64,000 nucleotides of DNA, taken from Halomarina ordinaria (GTDB lineage Archaea; Halobacteriota; Halobacteria; Halobacteriales; Haloarculaceae). The translations under genes and the position numbers were made by a program. The DNA lies in assembly GCF_030553305.1 (NCBI RefSeq), contig NZ_JARRAH010000001.1:1-64000 (forward strand). The letters are read 5' to 3'. Of this stretch, positions 42,674-47,114 are shown one piece after another. The notes beneath the pieces are model-generated. The model worked only from the letters and a program-made list of their open reading frames with translations. It made no database searches and was not told where the DNA came from. Position 1 is the first letter of the stretch, and every line of letters begins with the position of its first letter.

Positions 42674-44509
42674 ATGGCGTACATCGTTCGGATGCCGAAG
42701 CTCGGACTGGAGATGGAACGGGGGGTGCTGCTCGAGTGGTACGTCGCCGAGGGCGGCGAGTGCGAGGAGGGGGACCCCGTCGCGGAGATAGAGTCGGAGA
42801 AGACCACCGCCGAGGTCGACGCCCGCGAGGGCGGCGTCCTCCGGGCGACCTACCTGGAGGAGGGCGAGGAGGTCGAACCGGGGACGCCCATCGGCATCAT
42901 CGCGGGCGCCGACGAGGACGTCTCGGACCTCGAAACGCAGGTGCGGGCGGACCTGGGCGACGGCGACGTGGCCGAGGGGGGCGAACCGGCGTCGGAGGAG
43001 GCCACCACGGAGGCGGACGAGAGCGCCCCGAAGTCGGCGGTCAAGCACGCCGGAAACGGTGCGAGCGAATCGGCCACCGGGGTGGAGGAGGTCCGCGCCT
43101 CCCCCCGCGCCCGCAAGCGGGCCGAGGAACTGGGCGTCGACCTGACGAGCGTCGAGGGGACCGGACCGCAGGAGTCGATAACCGCCGAGGACGTCGCGGC
43201 GGCGGCCGAATCGACGGGGGACGCGGCCGAGGTGAAGGCGAGTCCCCGGGCGCGAAAGCGCGCCGACGAACTCGGGGTGGACCTGGCGAGCGTCGAGGCG
43301 ACGGGGCCGCAGGGGTCGGTCACCGAGGAGGACGTGGAGGCGGCCGCGGAGTCCGCGGACGAACCCGTGACCGAGACGCCGGCCGGCCTCACCCTCCGCG
43401 AGGAGCGCCCGTTCGACGGGATGCGCCGGACCATCGCCCGGCGACTGGGCGAGAGCTATCGCGAGGCCGTCCACGTCACCGCCCACCGGACCATCGACGC
43501 GGAGGAACTCGTCGCCGCGCGCGAGGCGGCGAGCGAGGCGCTCTCGGCGGACCTGTCGCTCACCGACCTGCTGCTCGTGGCGCTCTCGGACGCGCTCGAC
43601 GACCACCCCGAGTTCAACGCCCACTTCGAGGACGGCTCCCACCGCCTCTACGAGGAACACAACATCTGCCTCGCGGTCGACGTCGAGGCGGGGCTCATCG
43701 CCCCCGTGGTCCGCGACGTCGACTCCACCCCGTTGCCGGAACTCGCCGACGCCCGCCGCGACCTGACCGAGCGGGTCCTCGACGGCGACTACACGATGGA
43801 CGACCTCTCTGGCGGCACGTTCACCGTCTCGAACCTGGGCGTCCTCGGCGTCGAGTCGTTCGACCCCGTCATCAATCCGCCGCAGGTCGCCATCCTCGGC
43901 GTCGACGCCCTCCAGCGTCGCCCCGTCGCCACCGAGTCGGGCGTCTCGGTCCGACGGGTGCTCCCGGTCGACCTCTCGTTCGACCACCGGGTCGTCGACG
44001 GGGCCGACGCCGCGCGCTTCCTCGGGTCGCTGAAGGAGGCCGCCGAGGACCCGTGGTCGCTGCTCCCCGAGGCGGTCGAACGGGTCCCGGCCGGGGAGGC
44101 GCTCGACCTGCCCGAGCGCGACGTGACCGCGCGGATGCGCGACGATACCGCGGGAACCGTCGGCGTCGGTCCCGTCGAGTGGGACTTCGACGTCCCCGAG
44201 GACCTCGGCGGCGGGGCGACGGGGCCGACGCCGGTGGACATGTTCCTCGGGTCGCTCGGCGCGTGTCTCTCGCTCAGCCTCCGGATGCAGGCCGACCGGA
44301 GCGACACGCCGCTCTCGGACGTCGACGTCCGCGTCCGGGGGTCGCCCGAACGCGGCTGGCTCGAAGAGGTGGCGGTGACGGTGACACTCGAATCGAGCGC
44401 GGACGACGCGGCCCTCGACCGACTGGTCGAACTCGGCGAGCGCAACTGCTACGTCACGGCCGCGCTGGCCGACGACGTCCCCCTCGAGATATCGTGGCGG
44501 CGCGCCTGA
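42674..44509 (+). CDS. Dihydrolipoamide acyltransferase (E2) fused to an OsmC/Ohr-like thiol-peroxidase domain
   Basis: 611 residues. Lipoyl domain 1-80 with lipoyl lysine K43 (EIESEKTTAEV); acidic linker; two tandem peripheral-subunit-binding domains (139-176 and 187-224, each starting ASPRARKRA); catalytic E2 domain 240-455 with the active-site DHRVVDG (437-443). A further domain, 485-611, is OsmC-like: GPTPVDMFLGSLGACLSLSL with C531 and GERNCYVTA with C592, 61 residues apart as in Ohr/OsmC. E2 moves acyl groups on a swinging lipoyl arm between E1 and E3. The genes for E1 lie 1.6-3.6 kb away, convergent; no E3 is in the window. The fused OsmC domain and the doubled subunit-binding domain are unusual. 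Confidence 0.93.
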   Translation: MAYIVRMPKLGLEMERGVLLEWYVAEGGECEEGDPVAEIESEKTTAEVDAREGGVLRATYLEEGEEVEPGTPIGIIAGADEDVSDLETQVRADLGDGDVAEGGEPASEEATTEADESAPKSAVKHAGNGASESATGVEEVRASPRARKRAEELGVDLTSVEGTGPQESITAEDVAAAAESTGDAAEVKASPRARKRADELGVDLASVEATGPQGSVTEEDVEAAAESADEPVTETPAGLTLREERPFDGMRRTIARRLGESYREAVHVTAHRTIDAEELVAAREAASEALSADLSLTDLLLVALSDALDDHPEFNAHFEDGSHRLYEEHNICLAVDVEAGLIAPVVRDVDSTPLPELADARRDLTERVLDGDYTMDDLSGGTFTVSNLGVLGVESFDPVINPPQVAILGVDALQRRPVATESGVSVRRVLPVDLSFDHRVVDGADAARFLGSLKEAAEDPWSLLPEAVERVPAGEALDLPERDVTARMRDDTAGTVGVGPVEWDFDVPEDLGGGATGPTPVDMFLGSLGACLSLSLRMQADRSDTPLSDVDVRVRGSPERGWLEEVAVTVTLESSADDAALDRLVELGERNCYVTAALADDVPLEISWRRA

Positions 44510-44518
44510 GCGGGGACT

Positions 44519-45025
44519 TCAGTCGGGGTACGTCCGGTCGGGGTCGGGGAGCGCGTCCACGTTGTCGGCCGTCTCGAAGATGACCCCGTTCAGGTCGTCT
44601 GCCGTGTCGAAGTACCAGTAGGGCGTCTCCTCGAAGACGCCGCTCTGGACGACGGGCATCCCGTTCTCCTCGAACGCCTCGACCACCGCCGGCGGGTCCT
44701 CGAAGGCGAAGCAGGCGACGTGGTGGAGCCCCTCGCCGTGTTCCTCCAGGTGTTCCGTGTAGAGGCTCGGCCCCTCCAGCGGTTCGATGAGCTCTATCAT
44801 CGTGTCGCCGACCGTCGCCAGCGCCAGTATCATCGAGTAGTCGTGGTCCTCGCCGCGGAAGGTGGTGTCGTGGAGCGCGGGCGGTTCGAAGCGGTACAGT
44901 TGCCACGGCCCGACGCCGAGGAGCGCCCCGAAGCGGTCCATCCCGTCCTCGATGTCCTCGACGACGAACGCCACCTGGCTGATCTCGGGCACGTCGACGC
45001 CGATGTCAGGTACGACTGGAGACAT
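44519..45025 (-). CDS. VOC (glyoxalase/epimerase) superfamily protein
   Basis: 168 residues, two beta-alpha-beta-beta-beta modules. ISQVAFVVEDIEDGMDRFGA starts the first, GLHHVACFAFEDPPAVVEAF the second; acidic ligands lie in TMIELIEPL and LNGVIFETAD. The usual first metal histidine in the first strand is glutamine here (SQVAF), leaving three canonical ligands. Resembles methylmalonyl-CoA epimerase-type proteins. ATG 45025; GATAAACAAT lies about 27-36 bases upstream. Its stop lies ten bases after the E2-OsmC stop, convergent. Confidence 0.85.
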   Translation of the reverse strand: MSPVVPDIGVDVPEISQVAFVVEDIEDGMDRFGALLGVGPWQLYRFEPPALHDTTFRGEDHDYSMILALATVGDTMIELIEPLEGPSLYTEHLEEHGEGLHHVACFAFEDPPAVVEAFEENGMPVVQSGVFEETPYWYFDTADDLNGVIFETADNVDALPDPDRTYPD

Positions 45026-45109
45026 GACGGACACTGTTCGTCGGTAGCACACATCATTGTTTATCAGCGATTCCTGACTATCCGGCGAGCGAGGCGGTTC
45101 GTGGACCGC

Positions 45110-46102
45110 TCACTCGACGAACAGTCCCTCGGCCGCCGCGCGGTCGAACACGCTCGGGAAGTCGACGAACCGCGGTCCCTCGGCGCGGGCGCGGACCTCG
45201 ACGCGGGCGTCTCTCACCTCCAGTTCGCGCTCGCCGTCCGCGCTCAGCACCCCCTCGGGAACGTCGAAGACGACCGCTTCGCCGTCGTCGAGGCGGCGGT
45301 GGTCGGTGACGCCGATACGGCCGACGACGCCGGGGGTGCTCATCGCCCGGACGACGGTGGGGGCGTCCTCGGCGGGCCCGAGTCGGAGGCCGACGCCGCC
45401 CGGGTCGTCGGGCGCCACCGCGCCGAGCGTGCCCGCGATGCCCGAGAGGCCGACGTCGCCCGGCGAGGCGCGCGAGACGACGCCCCCGACGAAGTCGCCC
45501 GGGTCGAGGACGGCGCGCGTCCCGACGAACGGCCGGTCGAGCACCGAGAGGGTGGCGAGGCCGACGAACTCGCGCCGCCCGCCGTTGTCGTCGACGGACG
45601 CGACGACGGTCCGGTGGCGGACCGTCACCGCGTCGCTCGGGACCGCCCCGGCTGCCACGAGGGCGGCGGCGGCCCCCGCGGGCGTGCCGTCGATGGCCGT
45701 CGGGACGACGTTGTTCGTCCCCGTCGAGATGCTCGCCACGGGGACGTCCCCGACGGCGGCCGCCACGTCGCGGTTCGTCCCGTCACCGCCGAGGACGACG
45801 ACGCAGTCGGCGCGCTCGGCGAACGCCGCGGCCGCCGTCCGGGTGTCCTCGCCCGAACCGGTGACCGGCTGGTCGAGCAGTTCGCCGTCGACGTCCTCCG
45901 CCTCCTCGACGACCTCCTGCCCGATGTTCGCCTTGTCCGGCATCGCCAGCAGGTCGGGCGTCGACGGGACGGTCGTCATCCCGGCGAGGACGCACCGGGC
46001 GGTCTGGAGCTTCGCGTAGCGGTCGCTGACGGTGGCGCCGCCGGTGAGCCGCCTGATGTCGCGGCCCGCCGACGGGTTCACGACGAGTCCAACGGTCGCC
46101 AC
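45110..46102 (-). CDS. acoX: AcoX-like protein (ATP-NAD kinase fold)
   Basis: 330 residues. N-terminal VGLVVNPSAGRDIRR and VVVLGGDGTNRDVA (about 93-106) plus STGTNNVVPT are the NAD/diacylglycerol-kinase GGDGT/TNN signatures. AcoX occurs with acetoin and related 2-oxoacid dehydrogenase operons; its biochemical role is unsettled. Its start is one base downstream of the E1 beta stop, so it is co-translated with E1. Presence of AcoX favours an acetoin- or unusual 2-oxoacid-type substrate over plain pyruvate. Confidence 0.85.
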   Translation of the reverse strand: MATVGLVVNPSAGRDIRRLTGGATVSDRYAKLQTARCVLAGMTTVPSTPDLLAMPDKANIGQEVVEEAEDVDGELLDQPVTGSGEDTRTAAAAFAERADCVVVLGGDGTNRDVAAAVGDVPVASISTGTNNVVPTAIDGTPAGAAAALVAAGAVPSDAVTVRHRTVVASVDDNGGRREFVGLATLSVLDRPFVGTRAVLDPGDFVGGVVSRASPGDVGLSGIAGTLGAVAPDDPGGVGLRLGPAEDAPTVVRAMSTPGVVGRIGVTDHRRLDDGEAVVFDVPEGVLSADGERELEVRDARVEVRARAEGPRFVDFPSVFDRAAAEGLFVE

Positions 46103-46103
46103 G

Positions 46104-47114
46104 TCAGGTGATACGCTGGACCGCCCGACGGACGTCGGCCGCGTCGGGGAGGACTTCCCCTTCGAGCGCCGGACTGAACGGGATGTGCGTGTCGGGCACG
46201 CCGACGCGCTCGATGGGTGCGTCGATGCTGAAGAACGCGTTCTCCATGACGCGCGCGACGACCTCCGAGTGGACGCCGTAGGAGAGCGGGCTCTCGTCGG
46301 CGACGACCATCCGGCCGGTCTTGTTCAGGCTCTCGACGAGCGTGTCGGTGTCGAGCGGGTAGAGCGAGCGCAGGTCGATGACCTCCAGACTCACGTCGCC
46401 GTCGAGTTCGTCGGCCGCGCTGAGCGACTCCCCGACGAGGCGCTGGGTGGCGACGACGGTGACGTCCTCGCCCTCGCGCTCGACGTTCGCCTCGCCGAGC
46501 GGGATGGTGAACTCCTCGTCGGTGGGGACCTCCCCCTGCTGCTCGTAGGTCATCTTGTTCTCGAAGAAGAACACCGGGTCGTCCGAGCGGATGGCCGTCT
46601 TGAGCAGGCCCTTCGCCGCGGCCGGGGTCCCGGGCGTCACCGCGAGCAGGCCGGGGAAGTGCGCGAACCAGGTGTGGACGGTGCCGGAGTGCTGGCTCGC
46701 GGCGCCCATGCCGCCACCCTCGGTGGTGCGGACGGTGATGGGCATCTCCGTCTTCCCGCCGAACATGTAGCGCATCTTCGCCATCTGGTTCATCACCTGC
46801 TCCATGCTGACGCCGAGGAAGTCGCTGAACATGATCTCGACGACGGGGCGAGAGCCGGTGGCGGCCGCACCGACGCCCGCGCCCATGAAGCCCGCCTCGC
46901 TGATTGGGGTGTCGCGCACGCGCGTGTCACCGAACTCGTCGTAGAGGCCGTCGGTCACGTCGAGGACGCCCCCGAAGTGGCCGACGTCCTCGCCCATGAG
47001 GAAGACGTCCTCGTCGCGGTCGAGTTCCTCGCGAAGCGCCTGTCGTATCGCCTCGCGCATGGTCATCGTCGTCGTCTGGTCCGGGTCGTAGCTGGTCTGG
47101 GTCTCCGTGCTCAT
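46104..47114 (-). CDS. 2-oxoacid dehydrogenase E1 component, beta subunit
   Basis: 336 residues, transketolase-like pyrimidine-binding half of the thiamine diphosphate E1. FLMGEDVGHFGGVLDVTDGL, VEIMFSDFLGVSMEQVMNQM, EGGGMGAASQHSGTVHTWFA and the C-terminal LRSLYPLDTDTLVESLNKTG region are typical of branched-chain/acetoin E1 beta. It lies six bases downstream of E1 alpha and one base before acoX. Substrate not decided by sequence. Confidence 0.93.
   Translation of the reverse strand: MSTETQTSYDPDQTTTMTMREAIRQALREELDRDEDVFLMGEDVGHFGGVLDVTDGLYDEFGDTRVRDTPISEAGFMGAGVGAAATGSRPVVEIMFSDFLGVSMEQVMNQMAKMRYMFGGKTEMPITVRTTEGGGMGAASQHSGTVHTWFAHFPGLLAVTPGTPAAAKGLLKTAIRSDDPVFFFENKMTYEQQGEVPTDEEFTIPLGEANVEREGEDVTVVATQRLVGESLSAADELDGDVSLEVIDLRSLYPLDTDTLVESLNKTGRMVVADESPLSYGVHSEVVARVMENAFFSIDAPIERVGVPDTHIPFSPALEGEVLPDAADVRRAVQRIT

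What the first reader, a model, noticed from the sequence alone, without database searches (positions are those of the whole stretch)
42674..44509. Lipoyl E2 acyltransferase fused to an OsmC/Ohr-like thiol peroxidase, with both cysteines kept
The sequence shows, in one 611-residue polypeptide, a lipoyl domain (K43), two tandem subunit-binding domains, a complete E2 catalytic domain (DHRVVDG at 437-443) and a C-terminal OsmC-like domain whose two cysteines (C531, C592) have the 61-residue spacing of Ohr/OsmC. In bacteria, Ohr-type peroxidases are known to be re-reduced by lipoylated proteins and dihydrolipoamide dehydrogenase. Fusing the peroxidase to its own lipoyl arm would let 2-oxoacid oxidation directly power organic-peroxide removal. 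The electron-path idea is inference; the domain order is seen. Residue pattern differs from classic Ohr (D522 where Ohr has Glu).
Basis: partly seen in the sequence, partly recalled or inferred. Interest (0 to 1): 0.82.

Follow-up and report, generated by a model that had tools for sequence, protein, structure and literature searches.

The report
Redox domain fused to dehydrogenase E2
Many salt-loving archaea weld a two-cysteine OsmC-type redox domain onto the swinging-arm E2 subunit of a 2-oxoacid-dehydrogenase-like complex; the fusion is real, old and widespread, but when lineages lose the rest of the complex they repeatedly keep the redox domain and lose the arm's lipoyl attachment site, so the redox domain has a job that does not need its own arm.

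Summary
Window 42674-44509 (+) encodes one 611-aa protein: lipoyl domain (K43), two E3-binding domains, intact E2 core (DHRVVDG) and a C-terminal OsmC domain (PF02566, 61.7 bits, cut-off 27.5). Of 391 haloarchaeal genomes 50 encode it (51 proteins). Both cysteines occur in 51/51, the lipoyl lysine in 50/51. It usually faces E1alpha-E1beta-AcoX(-VOC). All fusions found are haloarchaeal. The E2 tree suggests the fusion is old in this E2 group.

(1) The Ohr catalytic Glu aligns with V521, not D522, and the Ohr Arg with T492 (mostly Met/Leu); neither is conserved. The domain is YhfA-like, a type without known biochemistry; "peroxidase" is unproven. (2) In 12 loci the gene is cut down to lipoyl-OsmC. 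All 12 keep both cysteines and lost the lipoyl lysine. Eight sit between the same flanking genes as intact fusions; one origin is rejected (p-AU 2e-8; the eight alone 0.003). In the ten such genomes searched, E2, E3-family, H-protein-type and lipoate-ligase-type genes remain. So the OsmC function does not need its own lipoyl arm.

Best reading: a two-cysteine thiol-redox domain tethered to E2, able to take electrons from dihydrolipoyl groups, but functionally separable.

The parts
42674..44509 (+). E2-OsmC fusion gene, 611 aa
   Evidence: open frame; Pfam architecture; AF2 full-length model with separate folded domains
42686..42901 (+). lipoyl domain (residues 5-76); lipoyl lysine K43 at 42800-42802
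   Evidence: PF00364 52.1 bits; K43 in 50/51 fusions
43091..43207 (+). first peripheral subunit (E3)-binding domain, about residues 140-178
   Evidence: PF02817, one of two stretches; helices 144-153 and 171-180 in the model; boundaries approximate
43232..43339 (+). second peripheral subunit (E3)-binding domain, residues 187-222
   Evidence: PF02817 best stretch
43400..44065 (+). E2 acyltransferase core, residues 243-464, DHRVVDG at 43982-44002
   Evidence: PF00198 230.9 bits; catalytic His in 51/51 fusions
44111..44506 (+). OsmC domain, about residues 480-611; C531 at 44264-44266, C592 at 44447-44449
   Evidence: PF02566 61.7 bits on 513-606; both Cys 51/51; AF2 pLDDT 91.3; Foldseek OsmC/Ohr/YhfA
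44519..45052 (-). VOC/glyoxalase-fold protein, convergent neighbour, present in part of the clusters
   Evidence: PF13669; recurs beside the fusion
45110..46102 (-). AcoX-like protein (NAD-kinase fold)
   Evidence: PF01513 and PF00781; adjacent in most clusters; the AcoX name rests on gene order and recalled knowledge
46104..47114 (-). E1 beta subunit
   Evidence: NF006667 340.4 bits over cut-off; PF02779, PF02780
47121..48152 (-). E1 alpha subunit
   Evidence: PF00676 311.8 bits
41272..42534 (-). NADP isocitrate dehydrogenase, divergent neighbour; not part of the complex
   Evidence: TIGR00183 611.5 bits over cut-off; same neighbour in the closest relative, MAG QS_5_70_17

Best explanation
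The gene encodes the E2 subunit of an E1(alpha-beta)/E2/AcoX 2-oxoacid- or acetoin-dehydrogenase-like complex that carries, at its C-terminus, a two-cysteine OsmC domain of YhfA-like active-site type. The domain most likely works as a thiol-disulfide redox unit: C531 reacts with an oxidised small-molecule substrate (organic peroxide or disulfide; identity unknown), C592 resolves it, and dihydrolipoyl groups with E3 re-reduce the pair. Fusion places it within reach of the complex's lipoyl arms. The reductant need not be the arm of the same chain: after loss of the dehydrogenase, the trimmed proteins would be reduced in trans by the lipoyl proteins that remain (other E2s, glycine-cleavage H protein) or by another thiol system. 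Shown: architecture, conservation, distribution, predicted fold, repeated trimming with loss of the lipoyl lysine but not of the cysteines. Inferred: redox activity, substrate, reductant.
For: Invariant Cys pair in 51 fusions and in 12/12 trimmed proteins, aligned with the two Ohr cysteines. OsmC fold. Gene clustering with E1alpha/E1beta/AcoX in most loci. E2 core and lipoyl lysine intact in the fusions. E3 and lipoate-ligase-type genes present in the window's genome. Separability: trimmed forms in the same chromosomal context as intact fusions, not one clade (p-AU 2.3e-8 for 12, 0.003 for 8), lipoyl part relaxed (mean pairwise identity 0.47 against OsmC 0.68; in intact Natrialbaceae fusions 0.80 and 0.77). 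The one genus with a separate OsmC gene also keeps it beside E1/AcoX. Precedent: dihydrolipoamide-dependent Ohr activity (PMC5962072), Ohr crystallised with dihydrolipoamide (6ebg), and OsmC working with the glycine-decarboxylase system in Trichomonas (title cited in PMC10332631; paper not read).
Against: No biochemical data exist. The catalytic Arg and Glu of Ohr/OsmC are missing, so peroxide reactivity may be poor or absent. Sister clusters (types B and C) run without OsmC, so the domain is not needed for the dehydrogenase. OsmC enzymes act as dimers; a dimer on an E2 core assembly was not modelled.
Confidence: 0.5

Rival explanations
1. One reading: an Ohr-type organic-peroxide reductase powered in cis by the lipoyl arm of its own chain, so that 2-oxoacid oxidation drives peroxide removal.
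For: Cis lipoyl lysine and both cysteines conserved together in 50/51 fusions; known lipoyl dependence of Ohr (PMC5962072).
Against: Ohr Arg/Glu absent at aligned positions; Ohr model score 16 against cut-off 88.85; trimmed lipoyl-OsmC proteins lose the lysine in 12/12 cases although a lysine-bearing version could still be fed by NADH and E3.
Confidence: 0.2
2. The OsmC domain is a YhfA-like enzyme with a non-peroxidase thiol chemistry (for example persulfide, disulfide or thioester handling); it sits on E2 for localisation, and its reductant is not lipoate (for example gamma-glutamylcysteine, the haloarchaeal thiol).
For: YhfA-like residue pattern; retention without lipoyl lysine; biochemical activity of YhfA unknown (PMC5962072, PMC8945050); gamma-glutamylcysteine at mM level in haloarchaea (PMC7278568).
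Against: Does not explain why the partner is a lipoyl enzyme in every fusion and why the separate copy in one genus also lies beside E1/AcoX.
Confidence: 0.25
3. The OsmC domain is mainly a dimerisation or assembly module for the E2 core.
For: Ohr/OsmC proteins are tight homodimers (PMC5962072); C-terminal position.
Against: Cysteines invariant in 51 fusions and 12 trimmed proteins, and the domain is kept after the E2 core is deleted.
Confidence: 0.05

Closest known systems
Ohr (organic hydroperoxide resistance protein), lipoyl-dependent peroxidase
   Same: fold, two aligned cysteines, possible electron supply by dihydrolipoyl proteins
   Different: stand-alone 14-kDa protein with catalytic Arg19/Glu51; here both are missing and the domain is fused to E2
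YhfA branch of the OsmC family (E. coli YhfA; Aquifex Aq_1549)
   Same: no catalytic Arg/Glu pair; acidic residue two positions after the conserved Pro (Aq_1549 PME, here PVD); close fold match (1ml8 rmsd 2.2, 2egt rmsd 2.3)
   Different: stand-alone, biochemistry unknown; here tied to a 2-oxoacid dehydrogenase E2
Thermoplasma Ta0195 (2onf)
   Same: best sequence-profile and fold match in the PDB
   Different: stand-alone; its alignment shows Arg and Glu at the Ohr positions
Acetoin/pyruvate dehydrogenase E2 (AcoC/PDH E2) with acoX-acoA-acoB type gene order
   Same: lipoyl-PSBD-core layout, E1alpha/E1beta/AcoX neighbours
   Different: two PSBDs and the C-terminal OsmC domain; substrate untested
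Stand-alone OsmC fed by glycine-cleavage H and L proteins in Trichomonas (Nyvltova 2016, cited in PMC10332631; not read)
   Same: OsmC working with a lipoyl protein and dihydrolipoamide dehydrogenase
   Different: separate proteins, not a fusion
AhpD/SucB/Lpd peroxidase system
   Same: 2-oxoacid dehydrogenase E2 lipoyl group as electron donor to a peroxidase chain (PMC8945050)
   Different: unrelated AhpD fold, separate polypeptides

Membership tests
2-oxoacid dehydrogenase E2 | lipoyl domain with lipoyl lysine | tested here: met
   PF00364 52.1 bits; K43 in 50/51
2-oxoacid dehydrogenase E2 | peripheral subunit-binding domain | tested here: met
   PF02817, two stretches; 20/20 homologues
2-oxoacid dehydrogenase E2 | catalytic core with DHRxxDG | tested here: met
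   PF00198 230.9 bits, H438 51/51, D442 48/51
OsmC superfamily (PF02566) | profile match and fold | tested here: met
   61.7 bits against 27.5; Foldseek 2onf TM 0.82
OsmC superfamily (PF02566) | two conserved cysteines | tested here: met
   C531 and C592 51/51
Ohr / OsmC peroxidase subfamilies | catalytic Arg (Arg19 in XfOhr) | tested here: not met
   aligned position is T492, Met/Leu in 44/51 of the family
Ohr / OsmC peroxidase subfamilies | catalytic Glu (Glu51 in XfOhr) | tested here: not met
   aligned position is V521 (Val 48/51); D522 is one residue later
Ohr / OsmC peroxidase subfamilies | curated Ohr model score | tested here: not met
   TIGR03561 16 bits against cut-off 88.85
Ohr / OsmC peroxidase subfamilies | dihydrolipoamide-dependent hydroperoxide reduction | not testable with these tools
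   needs purified protein
YhfA-like OsmC proteins | OsmC fold with two Cys but without the Arg/Glu pair | tested here: met
   definition from PMC8945050
YhfA-like OsmC proteins | phylogenetic grouping with YhfA | not tested
   no tree with bacterial YhfA sequences was built
Acetoin dehydrogenase (AcoXABC) | E1alpha, E1beta, AcoX and E2 in one cluster | tested here: met
   the NAD-kinase-fold protein is taken as AcoX from gene order, not from a dedicated model
Acetoin dehydrogenase (AcoXABC) | acetoin as substrate | not testable with these tools
   E1 models do not separate substrates

The most novel reading that the evidence does not exclude
A 2-oxoacid-dehydrogenase complex with a built-in second electron outlet: the lipoyl arm can pass electrons either to E3/NAD or directly to a YhfA-like OsmC domain on the same E2, giving the YhfA-like type its first known partner; when the complex is lost, lineages repeatedly salvage the outlet domain and re-wire it to other lipoyl proteins.
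Probability: 0.35. Interest if true: 0.8.

Novelty: new variant of a known kind. Interest (0 to 1): 0.6.

Why it matters
Lipoyl-dependent peroxidases are known as separate proteins that borrow electrons from dehydrogenase complexes. Here the likely acceptor domain is part of E2 in many haloarchaea, which makes the coupling directly testable in one polypeptide. The repeated trimming in nature, always with loss of the lipoyl lysine and never of the cysteines in the cases seen, is a natural experiment that separates the two functions. It also offers a genetic handle on the YhfA-like type of OsmC protein, whose chemistry is unknown.

Tried and rejected
Chance or frameshift artefact: rejected (51 homologous fusions). 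Plasmid-borne or bacterial fusion: none found. In the plasmid collection the listed best E2 matches end before or just into the OsmC region; the best-covering one examined (H3) is a plain E2 gene by annotation. A scan of genome contigs with two OsmC peptide patterns gave fusions only in haloarchaea; the bacterial hits are stand-alone OsmC frames. This scan is limited by its patterns. Lipoate deficiency as the cause of lysine loss in trimmed proteins: not supported, since the ten such genomes searched carry E2 cores, E3-family enzymes (over the curated cut-off in all but one, G321), H-protein-type matches (weak in G362) and ligase-type genes. Single origin of the trimmed forms: rejected. Number of OsmC losses in the B-type E2s: not decided (B one clade p-AU 0.078; B+C 0.127; the test for A did not finish). 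Literature: four searches combining OsmC with lipoyl, dihydrolipoamide, archaea or haloarchaea terms gave no description of the fusion; open-access papers only. A viral fold search was started and not collected.

Full report
What is there. The 611-codon frame at 42674-44509 (+) is intact. Pfam finds Biotin_lipoyl 5-76, two E3_binding stretches, 2-oxoacid_dh 243-464 and OsmC 513-606, all above their curated cut-offs. A full-length AlphaFold2 model shows a folded lipoyl domain, a low-confidence linker (96-138), two small helical domains, the E2 core and the OsmC domain. The OsmC domain alone is modelled with pLDDT 91.3, and its best solved relatives are OsmC/Ohr/YhfA proteins. The gene is convergent with VOC, AcoX-like, E1beta and E1alpha genes and divergent from isocitrate dehydrogenase.

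Recurrence. Residues 440-611 were searched in 391 genomes of the class and the loci were read. Fifty genomes carry 51 E2-OsmC fusions (one genome has two). In the sampled genomes of the window's own family only the window's genome has it. Most fusions face E1alpha-E1beta-AcoX, with VOC in part of them; a few lie with more distant E1 genes (L043, L068, L071, L072, L075) or with no complete partner set nearby (L044, L058, L073, L094). Named carriers include Natronococcus, Natronorubrum, Natrinema, Haloterrigena, Halobiforma, Halobellus, Halogranum and Halegenticoccus. The nearest relative is a MAG, QS_5_70_17, with the same isocitrate dehydrogenase neighbour; its frames are broken. In 51 fusions the counts are K43 50, H438 51, C531 51, C592 51, R482 46.

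Three E2 versions in one cluster. AcoX was found in 82 of 391 genomes. Reading the further loci gave three E2 types at the same place: A, intact core plus OsmC; B, intact core, no OsmC, in the sequences read with an extra PSBD-like stretch before the core; C, lipoyl lysine and PSBDs present but a core in which the DHRxxDG motif is replaced by YDxR-type sequence, no OsmC. In the E2-core tree the most basal branches are fused and C is one clade, which suggests that the fusion is old and OsmC was later lost; whether B was lost once or twice is not decided. The tree is a quick one with several long branches.

What kind of OsmC. The profile alignment with a solved Ohr (6mjn) puts Ohr Pro-Glu-Gln on Pro520-Val521-Asp522, and the Ohr Arg on T492. 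V521 is Val in 48/51 and position 492 is Met or Leu in 44/51. D522 is acidic in 51/51 and aligns with the Glu of the PME motif of Aq_1549. R19A and E51A leave only residual activity in XfOhr (PMC5962072), and YhfA proteins are described as lacking this Arg and Glu, with unexplored biochemistry (PMC8945050). The Ohr model scores 16 bits against 88.85. So the domain belongs to the OsmC superfamily, is not an Ohr by these tests, and resembles the YhfA type.

The natural experiment. Twelve proteins have only a lipoyl-like domain and OsmC. At the lipoyl lysine position they carry S, A, T, R, S, A, G, T, G, H, S, T; both OsmC cysteines are kept in all. Eight of the loci have the same flanks as intact fusions, a korAB-like pair on one side and PHP-domain and/or aroC-like genes on the other, with E1alpha, E1beta, AcoX and VOC gone (the gene names there are my reading of the sequences, not a database result). 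In the OsmC tree the trimmed forms lie at several places among the fused ones: 7 changes on the tree, at least 3 forced by strongly supported branches. A single clade is rejected for all 12 (p-AU 2.3e-8) and for the eight (0.003). Gene conversion could also scatter them, but the in-place deletion pattern favours repeated trimming. Their lipoyl part is relaxed (0.47 mean identity against 0.68 for OsmC in the eight; 0.80 and 0.77 in intact Natrialbaceae fusions), and in L069 and L185 it is eroded further. Nine of the ten searched genomes are at least 90% complete; all ten hold E2 cores, E3-family enzymes, H-protein-type matches and ligase-type genes, with G321 lacking an E3 hit over the curated cut-off and G362 having only a weak H-protein match. 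In one genus (L048, L049, L078, L079, and Haloterrigena salina L177) OsmC is a separate gene beside E1alpha, with a type C E2.

Reading. The cysteine pair is under strong constraint with or without the dehydrogenase; the lipoyl lysine only with it. The lysine in the fusions therefore cannot be cited as evidence that it serves OsmC. What remains for a link to lipoyl chemistry is the fusion itself, its age and recurrence, the adjacency in the split case, and the known lipoyl dependence of Ohr/OsmC. A model with reduction by dihydrolipoyl groups in cis or in trans covers all facts; a strictly cis, Ohr-type peroxidase covers them less well.

Limits. No activity, expression or lipoylation data. Whether AcoX marks an acetoin enzyme is not known. 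The OsmC dimer and its contact with the lipoyl arm were not modelled. The negative result outside haloarchaea depends on two peptide patterns, one plasmid collection and one sample of genomes. The literature search covered open-access text only.

Noticed in passing
L048, L049, L079, L126-L129, L131-L135, L137, L138, L140-L143 and others (type C): E2 proteins in the same E1alpha-E1beta-AcoX cluster keep lipoyl lysine and PSBDs but lack the catalytic DHRxxDG motif (YDTR-type sequence instead); one strongly supported clade. A dehydrogenase-like cluster with an apparently dead acyltransferase.
   Followed up: partly
L116-L125, L136, L139, L144, L145 (type B): Same cluster with intact E2 core, no OsmC, and in the sequences read a third PSBD-like stretch before the core.
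   Followed up: partly
L045, L053, L054, L059-L063, L065-L067, L080-L092, L095, L097-L101, L106: In the Natrialbaceae-type loci the fusion or trimmed gene is divergent from a 2-oxoacid:ferredoxin-oxidoreductase-like gene pair; in the window it is divergent from isocitrate dehydrogenase.
   Followed up: partly
L068, L071, L072, L043: E2-OsmC fusions also occur with more distant E1alpha/E1beta genes in the same direction; in L068, L071 and L072 the core motif reads DHRVVNG.
   Followed up: no
L096 and L070 (both G317): One genome carries both a full fusion and a trimmed lysine-less lipoyl-OsmC gene.
   Followed up: no
L087:6587-8557 (-), same gene as in L161: The lipoyl domain of this fusion holds an apparent tandem duplication (EGETLEEGEVVAEGETLEEGEVVAE).
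   Followed up: no
L058 and L146 (G213): AcoX in this genome is in fragments with a stop inside, near an intact fusion gene.
   Followed up: no
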